This document shows, piece after piece, positions 10,320 to 64,000 of a stretch of DNA of 64,000 nucleotides (its first letter is position 1; each line of letters begins with the position of its first letter). This stretch comes from Agarophyton chilense (taxonomy: Eukaryota > Rhodophyta > Florideophyceae > Gracilariales > Gracilariaceae). The stretch covers positions 992,001-1,056,000 of the forward strand of contig JARGXX010000097.1 of assembly GCA_030374765.1 (NCBI GenBank), read 5' to 3'. The translations under genes and the position numbers were made by a program. The notes under the pieces are model-generated. The model saw only the letters and a program-made list of their open reading frames with translations, was not told the DNA's origin and made no database searches.

Positions 10320-10790
10320 TACGAACGAAATTGATGACGCTAAGAGATCCTTCCTTTCAAGTAGTTAGCACCACATTCCACATTGCTTTGAGCACTCCCC
10401 AATTTCGTTCTCTTGCTTGTGTTACGTTCGAAATAGAAGCTCTCGATGAATATTAGACCCTCTTGGGAGGATCGATCAGCGGACCGCAATCCGTGCCACT
10501 GGTGTCGTAGTCACAGCCATCATCGGTACCGATTCGTCCTACACTATCTTTAAGTACGATGCTCTGCCGGTCATAGCCTAGGAAGGTCTCACCATCATAC
10601 TCAGTCTTCTTGATACATCTGCGTGTGGAGGATCTTCAACTTTGGATACTATACACAGTTACGCGCTGGCAAGAGAGCGGTCTCCCCTTCTGGAATGCGA
10701 AGGGTATCGACGGCTCCACTATATAGTAGCTCGAGCCGTAAATGGTTCTAGGGCGACCCGTTGAAGCCTGTGGCTCCAGACAAACGTCTG
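10320..10790 (+). pseudogene. Possible degenerate continuation of the PhoX-like gene
   Basis: GC content stays similar to the preceding frame, and short stretches such as RATGVVVTAIIGTDSSYTIF (around 10490-10560) could be a later propeller blade. Stops occur in all forward frames within about 100 codons. No convincing intron borders were found. Confidence 0.25.
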
Positions 10791-53059: not shown

Positions 53060-55570
53060 TTGGGAGTCTCCCCTGCGGGAGGGGCGTCTTCTAAGCCGGA
53101 ATTGAAGACGCCCGAGGCGCTCCAGCTTCGATCCCCAGCTGTGACTATCCTTTCAAGGAGAACGGCTGACACCGACGTTAACTCGGGATACTTTAGTGTC
53201 CTCCGTCGCCCGTGGATACGGTCCCGTAATCTCCGTATTCCGGATCGAGTTATGGTAATGGCCAAGCGGAATTATAAAGTATTCGCCGACTTCGCCCTGT
53301 CCAACCAGTTTATGGTTCGTCAAATATCTGTCCTGGATACAGGAGCCGCTCCTATCTTAATTCATGTTGAATTGTTACCCCCGCTGCTCCGGGTTCAAGT
53401 TCGTACCGGTCCACGTTTGGATATCGCCGATGCGAACAACAACCCGCTACGGACACTGAGTACAATTTCCCTCATGGTGAGGTTAGGCTCCTATCTCGTT
53501 CAGCTAGAGTTTATTGTATGCAAGTCACTTGCAGCACCAGTCACACTGGGTTGTGACTTTTGCAACCGCTTCGTGAAAGCCATCCGTCCTCGGAATAGAA
53601 CTGTGGAACTCGAAGACGGGTCTACGATACCAATCGTTCGTAAACCCTTACAGGGAGCAGCGCGAACACGCGTTCCTCTCCCTGTCGCTCAGGAATTCTG
53701 TGAAGAAGGACCCGGTGTCTACACAGGTAAAGGTTGCAAAGTCAGTGGCTATCCCGCCAGAAACCCAGGTTTGGGTCACAGTTGTTACCAAGCAAATTGG
53801 TGTGCATGTGGTACAACCGAACCCGTCTCTGTATACTCGGCGTCAACTCGCCCTTACGAATGGGGTTGTCTCCGTGGAACAGGATAAACCTTTCAAGGTT
53901 TTGGTAGCCAACTTTGGAAAGACAACGCAGCATTTGGTCAAACACCAGATCCTGGGTTATGTTCTTCCACACCCGCATGCGGTCGTACCTACAAATATCT
54001 CTATCGCAGAGGTCCTTGGTGTGGCGGACCCTAAGGAGGGGGAGGACACTGCCGAAATCGCGGAAGACGGTGAGCATACGACTGTAGCTCCACACGCTGA
54101 ACACTTTAAACCTCAGGAGGTTATGGCCCCTATCACAGGAGCAGACCAGACGGATCCTGTTCAGGAATTGGAGAAATGGGATCTCAACCATGTACCTGCA
54201 TCTCATCGAGAGAAGCTGAGGCACATGCTTCGTGAATTTACCGCCATATGGGATTGTTCCCTTGGAACTATTGGGATTACAGAACACCGCATCGACTTGT
54301 TACCGAACACTCGGCCTATTGCCCAACACCCTTACAGGGCTGGACCGAAAGCTCGGGAAGAGGAGAAATCTCAGGTGGAGAAGATGCTTAAAGCGGGCGT
54401 AATTGAACCTGCCCAGTCCGCTTGGGCCTCACCAGTGGTGTTAGTTCTGAAACCGGATGGATCGTGGCGTTTCTGCATCGATTACAGACGCCTGAACGAG
54501 GTAACCATTAAGGATGTGTACCCGATCCCTCGGATGGACGAATACATCGACTTCCTTGGGAGCGCTGCTGTTTTCTCTACCCTCGACGCCAATTCGGGCT
54601 ACTGGCAAGTCCCTATTAGGGAGGAAAATCGAGAAAAAACGGCTTTCGTGTGTCATCAAAGACTTTTCCGATTCCGGAGGATGCCTTTTGGGTTGACAAA
54701 TGCCCCCGCAACGTTTCAACGGGCGATAGACATTCTGTTGGCTCCCTTCAAGTGGAGGACGTGTCTAGTGTATTTAGACGACATTATTGTCTTCTCCAAC
54801 AACCTGGATGACCACCTCGAACACGTCAGGGACGTAATGAAGATACTCCGCGACGCGGGAATCACCTTGAAACTCAAGAAGTGCGAGTTTTCACCGATTT
54901 GGTTAAGTATCTGGGTCATAGCATCCGTCCCGGACAGCTTTCAATCGATGAAGTACGAGTGAAATCCTTGAAGGAAGCAAAACACCCGAAAACTCAAACG
55001 GAGTTGCGATCCTTCTTAGGTCTGTGTAACGTGTATCGCCGATTCGTCCCGAACTTTGCGGATATTGCCACCCCCCTCAACAGGCTCCTGACGAAGGAAC
55101 AACCAGTTGAACTGGAACCTTTTGGCGACGCGGAAGCGTCTGCCTTCACGGCACTGGTGAATGCCGTAACATCACCGCCAATCTTGGCTCTACCCAATCC
55201 TGGGCTCCCTTACGAAGTGGACACCGATGCTAGTGCAAACCAAGTAGGGTGTGCATTGTTCCAATTCTCTGAGGATGTTGAACGTCACCCTATTGGGTAC
55301 TGATCATGTTCCCTGAATGTCCATGAAAGGAACTACTCAGTCTCCGAGAAAGAATGTTTAGCCGTTGTGTGGGCCTTAGCTACACTTCGACCCTATCTGA
55401 TGGGTACTCGTTTCAAAGTCCATACGGACCACTCATGCTTGCGTTGTCTCCTGGAGATCTCCGAACCCTCGGGCCGCCTTATGCGCTGGCGTCTCTGACT
55501 GTCGGAATTCGACTTTGAGATCCTGTACAAGAAAGGGAAGCTGAACACCCAGGCTGATGCACTATCCCGC
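53060..55570 (+). pseudogene. Gypsy 2 protease, RT and RNase H
   Basis: 53060-53887: aspartic protease with ISVLDTGAAPILIHVELLPP (53330) and LGCDFCNRFVKAI. After a frame change near 53700, 53700-54962 carries RT: VVLVLKPDGSWRFCIDYRRL, FSTLDANSGYWQVPIREENR (first Asp), FRFRRMPFGLTNAPATFQRA and TCLVYLDDIIVFSNNLDDH (YLDD). A second shift near 54890 leads to 54881-55303, with TELRSFLGLCNVYRRFVPNF and EVDTDASANQVGCALFQFSE. RNase H continues through TGA codons at 55301 and about 55497 (replacing residues that are usually W/S and R) to KLNTQADALSRLG. RT catalytic residues are intact. Confidence 0.85.
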
Positions 55571-56839
55571 TTGGGAACCACAGCGGAAACGGAACCCTAC
55601 GAGGACGATGACATCCCATGTTTTATGGTATCGGACCTCGAGGGAGGAGCTCAACCGCTGACGGATGATGTTTGTGACGATATACTCGTCAACGAGAGTC
55701 TGGATTCGCCGACCGGCTCTTTTATATCTATCTCTCCAGAGGAGATGATACGCGAGCAACAGCTCGACCCATTCTGTACACGGATTCGGGCTCGACTCAA
55801 CGGAGGATTTCAGTTACCTTTCGAGGACGACGATCAGGGTTACCTAATCAGGACCGTTGGACCTCGCCAGAGGATAGTGGTGCCGCACACCCTACAACAG
55901 AGGGTATTACACCTCACTCACTATGTGAAGGTTGGCGCCCACCCCGGGGGAAGAAAACTGTACCTCACGTTGAGAAGGGACTTTTACTGGCCGGCAATGG
56001 CATTCGATTGTTACGCCGTCAGACGGGCCTGCGCCAACTGCGCCAAGAATGACGTCAAACTTCGGAAGCACTCTAAGAAGTTGACGCTGTTCCCGGCACG
56101 GGCTCCACTCGAATTCGTGGCCATAGACATCCTAGGGGAGTTTATCAGGACGCCCCGAGGTCATCGGTATCTGCTTGTCATTTCTGACAGATTCTCTAAG
56201 CTAACGAGAACTGTGCCGCTGAAGCGGATCACCGCCGCTACCGTCGCGCAAGCGTTAGTGACCCATTGGGTGTTCGTATATGGACCGCCGGTGCAGTTGT
56301 TATCCGACAACGGAGGGCAATTCGCATCAAAGTTCTTTCAGGATGTATGTCGAATCCTTGATGTAAGGAATTTATTTGTTACTACGTATCACCCTAAGGG
56401 GAATGGCCAGGTGTAGAGGTTTAACCGCACGATACTCAAGGCTTTGAGATCGTATGTTGCGGATCACCCCAAAAATTGGGACTTGTACACAGACGCTATC
56501 ACGTATGCATACAACACCCAGGTACATCGGGTTACATCGTCATCCCCATTCGAACTGGTACTGTCGAGGACACCGCCGCCGGTCGCCATCGAGGCTCAAC
56601 CGACGCTGTCGACGTACCCGTCACCGGGATTTTACCGAGAAGCCTGGAAGGAGTGGCTTACGAAGATGCTGCCGATAGCCCGGAAAGCAATGGACAAAGC
56701 TCAACGCGCCTACAAGAAGGACTTTGACAATCGGGTTCGCAAACCTCTACCTCAGGTGGAGCCCGACGACTTCTTCTTCCTTCGAAAGGAATACTACAAT
56801 CCTGAAAAGGAACGTACGTCAGTGTTCCCGGAATGCTAG
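55571..56839 (+). pseudogene. Gypsy 2 integrase
   Basis: In frame with the RNase H end. A linker is followed by the zinc region (HLTHYVKVGAHPGGRKLYLT ... CANCAKND), and the core with FVAIDILGEFIRTPRGHRYL (first Asp) and VQLLSDNGGQFASKFFQD (second Asp). The frame stops at 56414 (TAG) exactly where the catalytic Glu of the GNGQVERFN motif should be, then resumes as RFNRTILKALRSYVADHPKN. The C-terminal part (56444-56839) has DTYAYNTQVHR-like and QVEPDDFFFLRKEYYNP segments. It breaks off near 56815. Confidence 0.82.
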
Positions 56840-56941
56840 TTCAGTGGTCAAAAAATGACGAATTGAAATGACCGAAAAACCTGTGAATTTATCCAAATTT
56901 GGAGGTGTTAATTTCCGAAAATATTTTCATTCGTTCATTAA

Positions 56942-57011
56942 TGCTAGTTTGTATGGGAAGGAAAACTAGCACATATCTGCAGTTTTCTAGTTTTGATGGA
57001 GGTAAAACTAG
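56942..57011. repeat. Two adjacent small hairpins
   Basis: GCTAGTTT ... AAACTAGC at 56942-56969 and CTAGTTTT ... AAAACTAG at about 56988-57010 have the same arms. AATGCTAGTT also occurs at 56829. They sit between the broken gypsy and the transposase leader and could be subterminal sites of the DNA transposon. Confidence 0.5.
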
Positions 57012-57125
57012 CGTGAATCTTTCTGTCGCCGCAGTTTAAAGGTAAAAGTAGAGAAGTGGTGCAGGAGCAGATTCAATCATTGTGCGCTCTAGATTGACAG
57101 ATTAGTACAAACAACCGGTCCCAAA

Positions 57126-57480
57126 ATGGACCTCGAAATAGAAATTGAACATTTAGTACCATCCATATCAATCGCAATAGAATCTCAGCCCGACCTGGCA
57201 GACCTCACGTGCCTTGCATTCTATATTATTCTCCACCGCCCTCCCCTGTCACGTGCCCTGTGTGCGCCATACTCTCTCTCCGTCTGCGCCCCTACCAACT
57301 TCTTTCCCACCACATCTCCTCCACCCACAATGCCTTCCTGCTGCTTCAACGGTTGCTCTTTCTTCGCCCGAGAAAACCCCGCCCTCCAGCGGCACCAGAG
57401 AAGGTGCCCTCATCGCCTCTCCGCCAACAAGCGCTTCCCCTCCCCTGGCGGAAATGAACCCAACTTCCCCCCGCGCACAA
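57126..57480 (+). pseudogene. Zinc-finger N-terminus in a different frame from the transposase
   Basis: From the ATG at 57126 one frame runs into a C2H2-type finger (SCCFNGCSFFARENPALQRH, then RRCPH) at about 57330-57415. Plavaka transposases are known to start with such a finger. This frame is not that of the transposase core, so either an intron near 57450-57600 or a frameshift joins them. No clear donor/acceptor pair was identified. It is treated as the probable true N-terminus. Confidence 0.5.
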
Positions 57481-60400
57481 AACGCCACAAGTCCACCTCA
57501 CAACCCCCCCCTAATCCTCCTCCCTCACTTCGCCCTTCTGACAACGTCCCTCTCGCACACCATGACTCCTACCTCCAAGACCAGCTCTCTCTCCCTCCAC
57601 ACCCAGGACGCCATCCACGTCGCCACTGCCCCTCTCGGTTCCCCCTCCTCTCTCGCTCTCTCCCCCCTCCCTCCTTCCACTCCCCCCCTCGACAACCCCC
57701 ACCTGGAGAAAATGGTCCTCTACATCTCCTGCATCGCCTCCAAGCTTGTACAACGAAAGGCTGACGAACTCATCACTCTCCTTAATGATCCCCACTTCTC
57801 CGAATCAACATTCCAGAACTCAGTCTCCTCCGCAAAGCAATGCCTCGAGCTCCAGGCAGACCTCTTCCACCATAGAAGCAGGTCTATTGGTTTCGCCCCC
57901 TCAACCATCTTCGATCCCCACAAACGATTCTCCGCAACCCTCTTCCAGAAAGACGCAATCCATGTCCTCAAACAACAGCTCGCCCTCGCACACTTCAAGA
58001 ACACCTTTTTCCACCCCATCTCCCAAACATCCGCCTCCGGCTCCCCCGCCTTCGCACACCCCATGGCAGCCACCCTCGGCTCAAAAGTCGTCCCCGCACT
58101 CAAGACCGCCATCATGCAATCCACAAAAGATAACATCGTCTGGCATCTCCCTCACTCCACCGGTATCGACTCCTTCATCGGCCTCGTCCAAATCTACTCC
58201 GACAAGTCCTCTACCTCTCTCAAATCTTCTTCCATCACCTCCTACCCCCTCCACATCACCCTTCTCAATTTCTCCGACTCCTTTCGCCGCAAATGCATCT
58301 CCGACAATCTCACACTCCTCGGCTATCTTCCCACCTCCTTCACCCCAATCACTCCTTCTCCAGATGCAGATATCAACACTCATTCCTCCTCCATCCCTCG
58401 CCAAACAAAAATGGAACTCATACAGCAGACCATCTCCTCCCTCCTTCAACCTCTCTTCTCTTCCGCCCTCCCCGGTTTCCCCTTCCGCGACGCAGACGGC
58501 GTTCTTCGTCAATGCCACCCCATCATCGCCAGCTACTGCGCAGACATTCCCGAGGCAAAGGATATTCTCGCCATCTCCCACGGCACCCGCCCCCAGCATT
58601 CCTGCCACAGGTGCTCTGTCCCTCGCTCACAACTCCATTAACACTCTCACGCCCATCCCCCTCGATCTCTTCCCCTCACCCTTGCAGCCCGCAACAAACA
58701 CTTCTCCGTCCTCAAGGACTCCGAAGCAGCTCTCCTCGCCCGCAGGCCAAGAGTCTCGTGCAACTTCAAGGAACAAGCTCTCCAAGCACTCCACTCCCTC
58801 TCCCACGCAAAATACCCCTCCCTCTTCCAGTCTTACCCCCTTTTCAATATCACCCCCCTCCTCACCCCATACAACATCTTCCCCTTCGAACCCCTCCACA
58901 ACTTCCACCTCGGCGTTTCCAAACTCATCAAGCTCGCCGCCATCGAACGTCTCAGATCAGAACACCTCTTCACCACCATCAGCTCCACAAACTCCCGCCG
59001 TTCCTTCCACTCCGTTCGCACCTCCATCCTCAAGCACTCCAACTTCATCCTCACCGCCATCGAAAATCATTCCCCAGCTACTGGCCTCCACATCGACTTC
59101 TCTACTTCCGAAAGCGGGCAGTCCCTCAACGGCTTCTTCACAACTGACGGCGTCCGCGGCATGCTACAAGCAAAAGACTACCGCGCCCTCGACATGGTCT
59201 TCCCCTTCATCGGCGCCTTCTTCGACCGCTGCTGTGACGAAGCCAATTCCGCTCCCATCACAACCGTCTTCTCCAAGTACACAGACCTCCTCCTCATCTC
59301 CATGTGCTACAACTCCGTCCCCGAATGGACCACTTCTCGTCTTGCCAAACTCGCCTCCCAAATCCATTCCTTCAAGCACAGAGCTGTCGATGTTCTCGGT
59401 CCATACCATACCTCCAACCTTGGCACCCTCAAATTCCACCTCCTCGATCACATCGTAGACGACATTCGACGCTTTGGGGGTCTCCACTTCAACGATGCAG
59501 GCATCTTCGAACAAGCCCATACCCTCTTCAAAGCACATTACTCCCGAACCCCCAAGCGCAGACCCACCGCGCACAACGAAACCATCCGTGCCATCGAACG
59601 CTCCGATGCCGTCAACAACTGGATTTCTCTCTCCGCTGATCCTTCCGTCACCTCATCCTCTCATGCCCCTCCTCCTCTCTTCCAAGCCCGCAAACCAGGT
59701 TTCGTCCGTGATGGCAAGCACACCTCCTTTTCCGATCTCATCACCGCTCACAAATTCCTTCGAGCAAACCCCCACTCAACAATCTCTTCCCTTCAGGACC
59801 TCTTCTCCCCAGACACTATCGCCATCATCTCACAGATTGGAACCCTCGCACTCCCCTCCTTCGTCACACTCACACTCGAAACACTAGCTCTCAACCAGGA
59901 CTCCCCCAATCTCCGCCAAACCCGTCTCACATTCGTCAATTCCGCATACGTCGTCGGCGGCTTCACCCCAACCATAGACGACTACATCGCCGATCGAAAC
60001 GAGCTCGCCGTCAAAGATCCCCCTCTCCCACTCATTCAACGTATCTTCGCTGCTCCCTCCTTCGGTCCCTCTAAAACCCCAAAGTTCTCCCACATCCTCG
60101 TTGCCGGCTCCAGCTTCTCCAACCCCACTCCCACCGCCTGGGTCTGCAAGCTCAACTCTCTTCTTCGCTTCACCACCCCTTCTTCCGCTTCCACTCATAA
60201 CCAGTTCGCCTTCGTTCAGTTCCTCGAACTCGTTCCACCCCAGGATCAAGTCGATGTCTCTCTCAATTGCATCTGCATCCGATGGGCAACAGACGACGAA
60301 CAAAACCACACCGCCCACCCCCTTCCTATCTCAAACACTTCCAACTCCGACAACGTCTCCCCCTGGTTCGGCCTCGTACCATCCTCTTCCATTCTCGGCC

Positions 60401-60591
60401 CCGTTCATGTACTTCGCCAAAACTACCCCGCACCCCCCTTCACCCCTCGATTGCAGTGGCGCTTCCATCGATTTTACCTCAACAGATTCTACCGAGACCC
60501 AACTGCCAAGCCCTACTTCTCCAATACCACCACTGGTGACACAACACCACCACTGAGTGTCACCCATAATAATACCTCCCAAGGCACATAA
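57214..60591 (+). pseudogene. Plavaka/KDZ-like transposase, one in-frame stop
   Basis: 1126 codons in one frame, interrupted only by TAA at 58639. Conserved-looking sequence begins near 57560. Motifs in order: LVQIYSDKSSTSLKSSS (first Asp, as in the Plavaka SDKT motif), YPLHITLLNFSDSFRRKCIS and TLLGYLPTSF (about 58240-58340), a Cys pair in CHRCSVPRSQL (58600), NIFPFEPLHNFHLGVSKLIK (58870), and FEQAHTLFKAHYSRTPKRR (59500, candidate Glu and the basic motif after it). These match, by memory, the RNase H-like core of Plavaka proteins from fungi. The C-terminal about 300 residues are unassigned. The codons are strongly C-rich. Elsewhere the frame is undamaged, so inactivation (if any) is recent. 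Confidence 0.68.
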
Positions 60592-60678
60592 TCCAATAAA
60601 ATAGTCACCGCTGCTTTTCTTCCATAGCCGACCCCCATCTTGCTCCACCTCCTTACCCCCTTATCCCCCCGTACCTTA

Positions 60679-62328
60679 TCACTCTCCCACTCCTTGCCTA
60701 CTCCCCAACGCTAAGCGCTTGAACCGTGGTTCTTCTGGTCCACATGACGCTATATAGCATTCTAACACCGCTCCAAGTCTTCTCGTGAGATTCTCCATGA
60801 AAAACTCCTCCCTTATCGCCAGATAGATTTTCTCTCTCGACGGTATCCATAGCCCAACCGTCGCGATTCTCTCCTTATTCCCACTCACATCTCTACGATT
60901 CCCTCCACAGAATCCATAATTCTCAAACTCCTCAGCATTCTCATCCTTCACCATGTTCCAGGCAACCCTCAATATGTCCTCAGCAGCCAATGGCAGAAAC
61001 CTCCCAAACAGCGTCGAGAACAAAAGTTGCCTTTGGCCTCCCCGCCCAACGTCTCTATCCATCGTGGTCATCACACATCCAATCCATGCATCAAGTCGCG
61101 CAAGATGCATCACCGTCCCATCCACATACTGCCTTTCTCCATTTCTGTGACTCTCTACCGCGTAGCCCATAAACTCCTCCAACACTTTCAACGACACCTG
61201 ATTTCGAAAATACATATCTGCCTCACCAAAGTCCTCCAAGTTCTCAGACACCTTCGATCCAGAATAAGTAATATCTTCAATCGCACTCGTTCTCCACGCA
61301 CACAGCTTACCTCTCCCATCCTCCCCCGACCCCATCAACTTCTCCTGCGCCTCCTCGATCTGCTTCTTCAACTCCGCCCAAAGCTCCGTCCCTTCAGTCA
61401 CCTTAGCTCGTTTCGCAATCAAATCATATCCAAGCATGGAAAACAGCTTATCACGCGCTGCTCGCTTCCGCACCCCAACCACATCGCTCAATGTCTGCTT
61501 CCTCCTCTGTCTCAAGCACCTATCCGCACTTACATTTTCCACGCACTCCTCTCTCCTCCCCGCTTCCCTTATCGACTCCCATTTCTCTCCCATTAACTCA
61601 GTCTCTACCACGTGCTTCAACAACAAATGGCTCACGCCCTCTGTCGACGGCGTATACGGTCTCATCTCATATGCAGCCTCAATTGGACATCTCGGAACCA
61701 TTTCCTTCTCTCCCACCACAAACATACTTTCCTCCCTACTCTCCCTAACCGCCTCACTTCTATTCTTCCAGCTTCGACCCACATTCTCGGTGTCGAAGCA
61801 AAGTTCGGATGCCTCCAGTTTTGCATAATGAAGAATCCTATCATACACACGACGTGCAAATCCATAAAAACATTCCTGCACCCCAATGTCATACTTTCGT
61901 CGCCGCGTCACGCCTCCCTCCCCCCTCCCTTCCCCAGCGATTCTACCTTTCAACGCCTCCCTCAAACTCTCAATCAGCACATTCTGCTGCTTCATTTCCT
62001 CCCTCGCCCGATCCAGCTCCGTTTGGGTCATTTTCAAACTCACCATCACACTGTAGCTGTCTTCCTTCATACGTCCCACTTGTCCCTTCAACACATTCAT
62101 CTTCTCAATTAGCATCGACCGCGGCAACAAACCTATGTCATCATCATTTTCTTCATCTTCCACTATACGGACGGCGTTCTCCACGACATTTAAATTCGCA
62201 TTCTCCCCGTTATCATTATTCCTTGTGAATACAATGTTTCTCCTTACTCGCATACCTTCCGGCGTCCTTCGCCTTGCGTTCACCTCGAACCCTTCAACTC
62301 CCAAACCCCCCCCTCTCCTCGGTGGCAA
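60679..62328 (-). CDS. Unrecognised 549-residue coiled-coil protein
   Basis: Intact 549-codon frame from the ATG at 62328, converging on the transposase gene. I recognise no family. The N-terminus is basic (MPPRRGGGLGVEGFEVNARR), followed by an acidic stretch (IVEDEENDDDIGLL, residues about 52-66). A heptad-like helix at about 70-125 (MLIEKMNVLKGQVGRMKEDS, TELDRAREEMKQQNVLIESL) predicts a coiled coil. The rest is helical and charged, with a few Cys (VENVSADRCLRQRRKQTL) and no catalytic motif I can name. The coding strand is purine-rich, complementary in bias to the transposase. Its position suggests an accessory transposon protein or a captured gene. Confidence 0.6.
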   Translation of the reverse strand: MPPRRGGGLGVEGFEVNARRRTPEGMRVRRNIVFTRNNDNGENANLNVVENAVRIVEDEENDDDIGLLPRSMLIEKMNVLKGQVGRMKEDSYSVMVSLKMTQTELDRAREEMKQQNVLIESLREALKGRIAGEGRGEGGVTRRRKYDIGVQECFYGFARRVYDRILHYAKLEASELCFDTENVGRSWKNRSEAVRESREESMFVVGEKEMVPRCPIEAAYEMRPYTPSTEGVSHLLLKHVVETELMGEKWESIREAGRREECVENVSADRCLRQRRKQTLSDVVGVRKRAARDKLFSMLGYDLIAKRAKVTEGTELWAELKKQIEEAQEKLMGSGEDGRGKLCAWRTSAIEDITYSGSKVSENLEDFGEADMYFRNQVSLKVLEEFMGYAVESHRNGERQYVDGTVMHLARLDAWIGCVMTTMDRDVGRGGQRQLLFSTLFGRFLPLAAEDILRVAWNMVKDENAEEFENYGFCGGNRRDVSGNKERIATVGLWIPSREKIYLAIREEFFMENLTRRLGAVLECYIASCGPEEPRFKRLALGSRQGVGE

Positions 62329-62339
62329 ACGCTCGACAT

Positions 62340-63674
62340 CTTCTCCCTGATGAGAAAGAACTGCTGCTCTTCCATCGCCTTCCTCACCTGATGTGACGCA
62401 ACGCGCCGGGCCCTTATTGAGGACAAGTAGCCACCCTCCTCCGACCTCCTTACACTAAGCAATGACGACGCTGTAATAGCTGGCATACTGCCAGGATGGA
62501 ATACCGTGCATGGCGCTAGGTGTCATACGTGTGGCAATGGCCGGCAGCTAGTTCTTGTGGTTGGCATCATACAGTGCTCTGCACTGCTGCCTTGTAATTT
62601 TTAATTGTATTTATTAGTTGTAATCTACCGTAATGGCTAACTGCTAAGCGGCCGGCGGTACTTGAGCGCCGGGTCGCCGGGGGCTAGACCGAAGTAAAGT
62701 CTAAGGCGGGAGAGACGCCTCCGAACTACTAGTTCGTGTCCTGAGACTATAGGGTTATCAGACCTTCGTTCCCAGTCGACGCCGACAAGACAGGTAGCAG
62801 TCTGATCAACTGCTGCAGAGGTATCTCTCGCGTTTTAGCCTATCGAGTATTCCCCGTCCAGTCCTTGCCCTCACGGCCATCGGTCGCCGCGTGGCGCATT
62901 GCACTTTCGCTCGGTCTATTGGACCGCTGGCAGTTCTACTGCCCGAGCAGATTGTAGACCCGTATCCGTTGGATACCGAGGTGTGGATCGGGAGCCTCGG
63001 ATGAGTGAGTATCACTTCCAGGTGCAGCTGGCAAAGCCAGGCAGGCGCATTCGTCTGGGCGCTGGTTCAATCCCAGGGCTTGCCCTGCTTTGCTATCGTC
63101 ACCCGTAGGGTGTGAGTGATTACCACTTTGTGGCGCCAGTCGGCATAGCCAAGAAGACGCTCTCGTCTGAGCGCTGGTACAATCTCAGGGCTTGTCCTGC
63201 TTTGTTATCGCCACCCGTTGGGTGAAGTGGTTGGTGCGTCGTTGCCGACGTTAGGGTCGTGGCGCTCGTCCGGGCTCTGGTACAATCCCGCGGCTCGCCC
63301 CGGCTACTCGTCATACGCGGCGTATATCTAGGCCGATCACTTCGGTTCGTGTCGGATCGACACCTCTCCGAGCACGTCTTCCGGACGCCAAGAGCTCCTG
63401 TGGAACGATAGGAGTCTGTGTCTAGTCGACACTCCTCGCCTGTGAGACGAAGCATCTCTTGAGTCGTTGCGGACTCTAGGGCCAGATAGCCGACCCCGGC
63501 TTTCCAGGCTCTGCCTGTGCGTAGCTCTCGCCGCCCGCGGCTGGTCTCCCGAGTAGCGCATTGCGTTACATTTCTGGTCTCCCGACTTAGAAACACAAGA
63601 GACTACGCAGTCTCACTTCTTCAAATTCAAGGAAATACTCGTCTTGTTGCCCAGGTCGTCACCCGGACCCAGTC
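62340..63674 (+). other. Presumed LTR/leader of a further gypsy element
   Basis: GC-rich DNA without a recognisable gene, preceding a gag-like start at 63675. Contains the tandem repeat described separately. LTR borders cannot be set because the rest of the element lies outside the window. Confidence 0.35.
63014..63320 (+). repeat. Imperfect tandem repeat, about 112-bp unit, 2.7 copies
   Basis: Units at 63014-63124, 63125-63237 and 63238-about 63320 share CGCTGGT(T/A)CAATC(C/T)CAGGGCTTG and CTGCTTTG(C/T)TATCG(T/C)CACCCGT in the first two. The third is more diverged and shortened. Each carries a GGTTCAATCC-like string resembling a tRNA B box. Confidence 0.7.
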
Positions 63675-64000
63675 ATGAGCACCCGATCAGGTGCTTCCTT
63701 CAGGCGTTCGACTTCGAACGACAATCAGTCGGTTTCGGGCAGTGGTCGAGAGGCTAGTTCTACAAAGAACAACGCCTCAGGACTCAGCGGAAGCAAACCC
63801 CCGAAACTTTTCCGAGTTGCCCAGTTAGCCCATGGCCCGACGCCCGGGGAGGCGCAGTCAGCGACTGCGAGAGATGCTGCCTCCTCACCCTCCCCAGTCG
63901 TGTAAGAACCTTCTTCCTCCGGACCCGCAGGTCCTAGTGTGCCAGTGAACACACCATCGGTAGCTCTTGCTACCTCGCCTAGGGTGGAGTTCACTCCCCT
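63675..64000 (+). pseudogene. N-terminus of a gypsy-like Gag, runs off the window
   Basis: From the ATG at 63675 the frame reads MSTRSGASFRRSTSNDNQSV, Ser/Pro/Ala-rich like the Gag start of gypsy 2 (MSPPTRGSRTGSNRQADS). An in-frame TAA at 63903 is followed by continued open sequence (EPSSSGPAGPSVPVNTPSVA) to the window end. The assignment rests on composition and on the leader-like DNA before it, so it is tentative. Confidence 0.4.

What the first reader, a model, noticed from the sequence alone, without database searches (positions are those of the whole stretch)
57126..62340. Convergent transposase and unknown gene sharing one extreme strand-biased block
The Plavaka-like transposase (+) and a 549-codon unknown gene (-) meet tail to tail. 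The whole 5 kb has a pyrimidine-rich + strand, so one protein is Ser/Pro/Leu-rich and the other Glu/Arg/Gly-rich. Such bias over two opposite genes suggests they move and mutate as one unit, with the second protein as an undescribed partner of the transposase.
Basis: partly seen in the sequence, partly recalled or inferred. Interest (0 to 1): 0.78.

Follow-up and report, generated by a model that had tools for sequence, protein, structure and literature searches.

The report
Large multi-gene Plavaka transposon in fungus

Summary
57126-62340 is pyrimidine-rich on +, with a broken Plavaka transposase gene and a second frame (gene 2) meeting tail to tail. [quoted passage not shown] one complete copy spans 18,774 bp. 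The window copy starts at 56817, is interrupted after 62391 by a retroelement and ends outside the window. The 549-codon frame is the 3' part of an ~880-codon gene of no known family. A ~55% diverged relative keeps the convergent layout and the bias. Downstream lie a prokaryote-type N6/N4 DNA methylase fused to SET (1043 aa), a palindrome array and an unclassified gene of ~1,240 codons. Silent-site GC skew runs from -0.96 (transposase) through zero near the array to +0.83 near the right end. Private mutations of resident copies (left 5.6 kb) are strand-symmetric, so residence does not make the skew. 25 of 75 TIR-bearing Plavaka loci show no listed gene 2 (capped list), so gene 2 seems not obligatory in cis. 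A second methylase-SET family lies near contig ends. New variant of a known kind; gene 2's role is inferred.

The parts
56815..56816 (.). target site duplication TA (left copy; the right copy follows C97:1072401, outside the window)
   Evidence: locus L001 with L053
56817..56839 (+). left terminal inverted repeat CGTCAGTGTTCCCGGAATGCTAG
56840..57329 (+). left non-coding end of the element; in the C117 copy the first 300 bp lack the C-rich skew
57330..60591 (+). Plavaka transposase pseudogene (PF18759 matched in the C117 copy L002); frame break near 57.6 kb, stop at 58639-58641
60592..60678 (.). gap between the convergent genes (38 C, 7 G of 87)
60679..62391 (-). gene 2, 3' part of an ~880-codon gene of unknown family (549-aa frame 60679-62328); its 5' part is split off by the insertion
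62392..64000 (.). start of a nested insertion (TGTGACGC...); Ty3-like pol seen by eye 4.9-5.5 kb further on (C97:1059251-1059850). The transposon resumes outside the window: SET remains C97:1066568-1067044, gene 4 remains C97:1067332-1070814, right end C97:1072401

Best explanation
The block is the left third of a large, recently active, multi-gene DNA transposon of the Plavaka group. In the complete copy read here (C117:1463530-1482303, 18,774 bp) the order is TIR, transposase (+), gene 2 (-), methylase-SET gene (-), palindrome array, gene 4 (+), weaker frames, TIR. SHOWN: boundaries, TSDs, copy number, gene order, joint movement of transposase and gene 2 and their joint divergence at one relative, N6_N4 methylase and SET domain matches, the positional skew in this copy. 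INFERRED: gene 2, which begins MAPKRKSRS (basic, so likely nuclear) and gives a mostly helical but unusable model, is an accessory DNA-binding or regulatory protein of its own transposon, as TnpA is beside TnpD in EnSpm or VANC in Vandal elements (both recalled). INFERRED: the methylase-SET protein is a chromatin or DNA writer that favours the element. INFERRED more weakly: the skew is renewed by a strand-asymmetric process or selection that acts in the active lineage and not in resident copies.
For: 29 scored copies, 27 over the whole query. Left 22-mer with up to 2 mismatches: 154 + 147 hits, reversed control 0; right 22-mer exact: 85. TSD in 17 of 19 copies with both ends read: 15 clean 2-bp, one 3-bp, one 2-bp beside a changed end base; TA also in C117. 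50 of 84 exact left ends pair with an exact right end, 28 pairs being 14.0-19.3 kb. PF18759 1.3e-22; PF01555 3.4e-18 and PF00856 8.2e-05 in one 1043-aa frame; DpnA 9e-10 among solved chains. Methylase-SET: 44 scored rows at 96-100%, 13 without an inner stop. Gene 2: 81 rows, 16 with an open frame of 836-960 aa and no inner stop; 9 rows (8 loci) at 47-55% identity. At C31 the transposase C-end lies beside gene 2 at 54-62% identity, itself with stops, and an exact TIR 22-mer about 3.86 kb from gene 2's end, as in the window. Third codon positions of that 600-base transposase piece differ at 0.495 against 0.249 and 0.163, which fits purifying selection between the families. Copies are star-like and young: 1336 private against 168 shared changes, mean 2.2% apart.
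Against: No domain or fold supports a function for gene 2: best Pfam match CRIM 0.0064, under its cut-off and over 38 profile positions; no PDB or NCBIfam match, PHROGs only 0.079; model pLDDT 35.6. Within the family no codon-position signal for gene 2 or the transposase, so the copies do not show selection on gene 2. Loci without a listed gene 2 exist. Two of 19 paired copies lack a TSD. SET passes its cut-off narrowly (23.4 against 22.4 bits). PlavakaB termini in print are CATCA..TGATG, here CGTCA..CAGACG. No expression data.
Confidence: 0.85

Rival explanations
1. Gene 2 is passive cargo: a host or foreign gene captured by this transposon and carried along without a role in transposition.
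For: No relation to known transposase partners found; short elements that cannot hold it multiplied too (nine TIR pairs of 3.0-4.8 kb); 25 of 75 TIR-bearing loci without a listed gene 2; no codon-position signal among copies.
Against: Alignable over 535 codons at 55% identity in a diverged relative with the same layout and spacing; 38 of 42 scored transposase loci keep it; 16 of 81 rows keep open frames of 836-960 aa without an inner stop.
Confidence: 0.3
2. The skew is only codon and amino-acid bias of single genes, and its left-right mirror pattern is accidental.
For: The transposase and gene 5 have C-ending codons, as fungal genes often do (recalled); the outer 200-300 bp have no such skew; with five genes a left/right split of signs arises by chance in about 1 of 16, and the split point was chosen after looking.
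Against: 4-fold sites on the + strand go -0.96, -0.64, -0.39, +0.50, +0.83 in map order whatever the coding strand; the 87-bp gap and the stretch L034:1208-1740 share the bias (the latter is not proven non-coding); the C31 relative keeps -0.78 at 4-fold columns although half of the third positions differ.
Confidence: 0.4
3. A chance neighbourhood: an old transposase beside an unrelated minus-strand gene at a fixed locus.
For: None found; the window copy itself is broken.
Against: Dispersed copies with the same pair, TIRs and TSDs.
Confidence: 0.01

Closest known systems
PlavakaB transposons, some with a TET/JBP dioxygenase (Kojima 2025, PMC12730594; abstract, sections 18, 23, 34, part 1 of 24 and passages read)
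   Same: Plavaka transposase, 2-3 bp TSD, similar first bases (C-x-TCA), an extra epigenetic-type gene carried by the element
   Different: Termini CGTCA..CAGACG, not CATCA..TGATG; no Tet_JBP (PF12851) match in this genome; a methylase-SET fusion and gene 2, neither of which is named in the parts read (supplements not seen)
EnSpm/CACTA elements with TnpD and TnpA (recalled)
   Same: Plavaka transposases are placed near EnSpm (PMC12730594); a second element-encoded protein
   Different: Gene 2 matched no known family; it lies against the transposase; subterminal motif arrays were not looked for; the array seen is central
Plavaka giant repeats of Amoebidium (PMC11244446, three passages read)
   Same: Large multi-gene repeats flanked by a Plavaka transposase
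   Different: Up to 50 kb with tyrosine recombinase genes, in a relative of animals; no TIR-bounded unit in the passages read
HarbingerS and MuDR elements with a SET gene (named in the introduction of PMC12730594, passage read)
   Same: Transposon carries a SET methyltransferase
   Different: Here SET is fused behind a prokaryote-type N6/N4 DNA methylase
Bdelloid rotifer bacterial-type N4-cytosine methylase (PMC8885841, search listing only)
   Same: Prokaryote-type amino-methylase in a eukaryote
   Different: Here fused to SET and carried by a DNA transposon and by a contig-end family

Membership tests
Plavaka DNA transposons | Plavaka transposase domain PF18759 | tested here: met
   1.3e-22, 80.9 bits against cut-off 26.3, in L002; the window copy also rings, 80.8 bits
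Plavaka DNA transposons | Defined termini with 2-3 bp TSD | tested here: met
   inverted 22-mers with one difference; TSD in 17 of 19 copies with both ends read and in C117
Plavaka DNA transposons | C(2)C and H(3-4)H motifs between second D and last E | tested here: inconclusive
   CHRC seen by eye in the translation; the H pair and the DDE residues were not aligned
PlavakaB subgroup | Termini 5'-CATCA..TGATG-3' | tested here: inconclusive
   Here 5'-CGTCA..CAGACG-3' in most; one copy (L011) begins CATCA; no tree was built
TET+ transposons | TET/JBP dioxygenase domain, HxD or HxE and distal H | tested here: inconclusive
N6/N4 DNA methylase (beta type) | DPPY motif and Pfam N6_N4_Mtase | tested here: met
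   DPPYNI seen; PF01555 3.4e-18 over cut-off; activity untested
SET methyltransferase | SET domain over the Pfam cut-off | tested here: met
   23.4 bits against 22.4, a narrow pass; some other copies fall under the cut-off

The most novel reading that the evidence does not exclude
This transposon has an asymmetric DNA-replication or single-stranded phase of its own, starting or turning at the central palindrome array, which builds a mitochondria-like silent-site skew (-0.96 to +0.83) that residence in the chromosome does not build; and it carries a DNA-methylase/SET writer, shared with a gene family near chromosome ends, to mark its own DNA.
Probability: 0.12. Interest if true: 0.88.

Novelty: new variant of a known kind. 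Interest (0 to 1): 0.7.

Why it matters
In what I read, fungal DNA transposons with epigenetic genes carry TET/JBP dioxygenases (PMC12730594). A methylase-SET gene in a young, high-copy element, with a sister family near contig ends, makes it testable whether transposons spread prokaryote-type DNA methylation in fungi. A strand skew that persists in the lineage but is not made in resident copies offers a sequence-only handle on how such elements copy themselves.

Tried and rejected
Fixed-locus neighbour: rejected. First thought that the window copy is simply truncated at 62391: corrected, since a right end with matching TSD lies at C97:1072401. Intron in gene 2: not needed, L004, L018 and L028 read 877-891 codons in one frame. 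Purifying selection on gene 2 from codon positions among 28 copies: no signal, and none for the transposase either, so uninformative. CpG-methylation scars: private C>T per CpG site 0.209 against 0.135-0.194 at other C; CpG observed/expected 1.01 in the block and 0.83-0.99 in the rest of the window: no strong signature, no other repeat family run as a control. TET/JBP in the element: not shown. Relatives of gene 2 and of the methylase-SET protein in viral contigs: none confirmed (patterns from single proteins, so close relatives only). Model of the 549-aa frame: unusable; no fold search was run. Gene 5 as ketopantoate-reductase-like: weak only (NCBIfam 7e-4 under its cut-off; Pfam 0.038). Paper searches, judged from listings: 'Plavaka' 10 of 11 listed, 'Kyakuja' 12, DNA transposon + GC skew + strand asymmetry 1, on mitochondria, giant transposon/cargo/GC skew 15 of 377 listed, methylase and SET with transposons 3, 20 of 25 and 15 of 51 listed, subtelomere and methylase 10 of 12 listed. 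I saw no report of a methylase-SET transposon or of skew in DNA transposons there; the unlisted papers were not seen.
Full report
WHAT IS THERE. The window is C97:992001-1056000 of an unnamed 79.8-Mb genome with 135 contigs; a mushroom-type fungus by its transposons (inference). The two genes and the pyrimidine bias are as described. A DNA search gave 29 scored copies of 307 candidates at 96-100%, 27 over the whole query. Of the 27 other copies read, 26 begin to match at 56808-56819 (L010 at 57080), and 26 stop at 62385-62391 (L026 at 62238). Past that point the other copies continue in common, so the break is in the window copy.

ENDS. Left ends read CGTCAGTGTTC..; the 22-mer with up to two mismatches gives 154 + 147 hits, reversed control 0 (these include right ends). 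Right ends carry the repeat inverted with one difference, GTCTGTG, 85 exact. Of 19 copies with both ends read, 17 have target duplications: 15 clean 2-bp, one 3-bp (L009), one 2-bp beside a changed end base (L022); L015 and L019 have none. The copy at C117:1463530-1482303 is 18,774 bp with TA on both sides. The window copy has TA on both sides with its right end at C97:1072401, 23.6 kb in all, because something starting TGTGACGC is inserted after 62391; Ty3-like pol is seen by eye 4.9-5.5 kb on. Of 84 exact left ends 50 pair with an exact right end within 26 kb: 28 pairs are 14.0-19.3 kb and 14 are below 8 kb.

GENES (C117 copy unless said). Transposase (+), frame of 1126 aa, L002:1589-4969, PF18759 1.3e-22. 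Gene 2 (-): one frame of 877, 891 and 884 codons from an ATG in L004, L018 and L028, broken in L002; it starts MAPKRKSRS. No credible family match (best is Pfam CRIM 0.0064, under its cut-off). Gene 3 (-), 1043 aa, L029:1373-4504: N6_N4_Mtase at 505-742 and SET at 869-1027; DpnA and CcrM among solved chains; 48 phage records match its methylase part, the ten listed at 26-29% identity. Gene 4 (+), L032:19-3600 with its start in L029, open frame 1247 aa in most full copies: no credible match. By eye it has a ParB-like IDGHHR stretch and an HTD..GDVFH..R pattern like 2-oxoglutarate dioxygenases; a lead only. A weak ketopantoate-reductase-like frame (-), 'gene 5', is at L034:383-1207.

PALINDROME ARRAY. 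Between the divergent genes 3 and 4 (L029:4678-5523) a scan for arms of 30 or more finds six palindromes in the C117 copy, arms 36-44 nt and one composite of 96; the core motif occurs seven times. The C10 copy has six, C16 (L026) two, the C71 copy L031 and L015 none; in these two the stretch is deleted. One unit folds as DNA at -61.1 kcal/mol against -15.7 +/- 2.4 for 200 shuffles. Units differ by paired changes by eye. A 20-base piece has 250 + 250 hits in the genome with up to one mismatch, control 0; I did not place them all. The same scan finds none in L002, L032 and L034 and one in the window, at 10790, outside the element.

SKEW (C117 copy). In 500-bp steps GC skew is -0.38 to -0.58 from 0.5 to 6.5 kb, -0.07 to -0.31 to 10 kb, +0.03 to +0.10 over the array, +0.17 to +0.40 to 17.5 kb and +0.54 to +0.70 to 18.5 kb. 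The first 300 bp have +0.15 to +0.29 and the last 200 bp 0 to -0.14. At 4-fold sites, on the + strand: transposase -0.96 (8 G, 415 C), gene 2 (L004) -0.64, gene 3 -0.39, gene 4 +0.50, gene 5 +0.83. Sign follows place, not coding strand; five genes are few for such a claim. Private mutations of 28 copies over the left 5.6 kb are strand-symmetric (C>T 0.172, G>A 0.157 per site; five of six complementary pairs p > 0.25, C>G against G>C p = 0.025) and would lead to a skew of -0.12. In the C31 relative half of the third positions differ over 600 bases, yet its 4-fold columns have skew -0.78. So the skew is kept up in the active lineage. Mutation in a replicating or single-stranded phase, or selection on the sequence, are both open. 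The right half was not tested for mutation symmetry.

DO THE TWO GENES BELONG TOGETHER. 38 of 42 scored transposase loci have gene 2 convergent within 1.5 kb, 30 at 94 bp. 67 of 81 gene 2 rows have a listed Plavaka domain convergent within 4.5 kb; the 14 others include all nine rows of the diverged family (only 123 of 235 Plavaka candidates were scored). At one diverged locus, C31, 600 bases show the transposase C-end beside gene 2 at 54-62% identity, with stops, and skew -0.42. Exact TIR 22-mers lie near the expected distance at two of the eight diverged loci: C31 (about 3.86 kb) and C135 (about 3.80 kb). Against: of 75 Plavaka-domain loci with the exact left TIR, 25 have no listed gene 2. 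By my subtraction of coordinates, in 20 of these 25 the domain lies 508-588 bp from the TIR instead of about 1,360, a shorter form; six of the 20 have open frames of 725-729 aa. They may be moved in trans. 33 more Plavaka loci have neither exact TIR nor listed gene 2; some are this family with a changed end (C7:260128 is also), others probably different families.

ORIGIN OF THE METHYLASE. PF01555 has 116 matches in the genome. I set apart by eye 30 with another score pattern, 20 of them in 1130- or 1141-aa frames. Of 14 plus-strand members 12 lie within 15 kb of the contig start (the others at 21.7 and 47.8 kb); the 6 minus-strand members with known contig length lie 1.6-15.1 kb from the contig end; 10 have unknown contig length. 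A SET match is listed beside all 30. Whether those ends are telomeres was not tested.

MECHANISM. Shown: TIR and TSD of a cut-and-paste type element, and a young burst (1336 private against 168 shared changes, closest pair 0.05% apart). Inferred: gene 2 as nuclear accessory protein (about 0.5), methylase-SET as a writer that favours the element (about 0.4), array as two-way promoter, protein-binding or origin site.

KNOWN. Kojima 2025 (PMC12730594, parts named above) describes PlavakaB with TET/JBP genes. Amoebidium has Plavaka giant repeats (PMC11244446, passages). PMC9674265, PMC8290104 and PMC13297926 were read as passages; PMC8885841 was seen in a listing. None of what I read names a methylase-SET fusion, gene 2 or skew in Plavaka; supplements were not available.

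Noticed in passing
G000 contig ends, e.g. C10:13447, C103:10464, C16:1849946, C95:2984630: A second N6/N4-methylase-SET family (30 loci set apart by eye, many with identical scores) near contig ends and pointing inward: possibly a homogenised subtelomeric family.
   Followed up: partly
L029:4678-5523 (C117:1473678-1474523): Array of near-perfect palindromes, arms 36-44 nt, between divergent genes of the transposon, of variable number between copies.
   Followed up: partly
window 54881-56816 and 62392-64000: The transposon sits in Ty3-like coding sequence and is itself split by another LTR-type element: nested insertions.
   Followed up: partly
C21:418808, C3:101521, C79:834535 and others: Loci with the same TIR, Plavaka domain about 515 bp from the end and no listed gene 2: a shorter subfamily.
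   Followed up: partly
G000: C31:442087, C104:54414, C13:802949, C27:775839, C2:1061999, C68:2031038, C116:746792, C135:1451228: Eight decayed loci of a sister family with gene 2 at 47-55% identity.
   Followed up: partly
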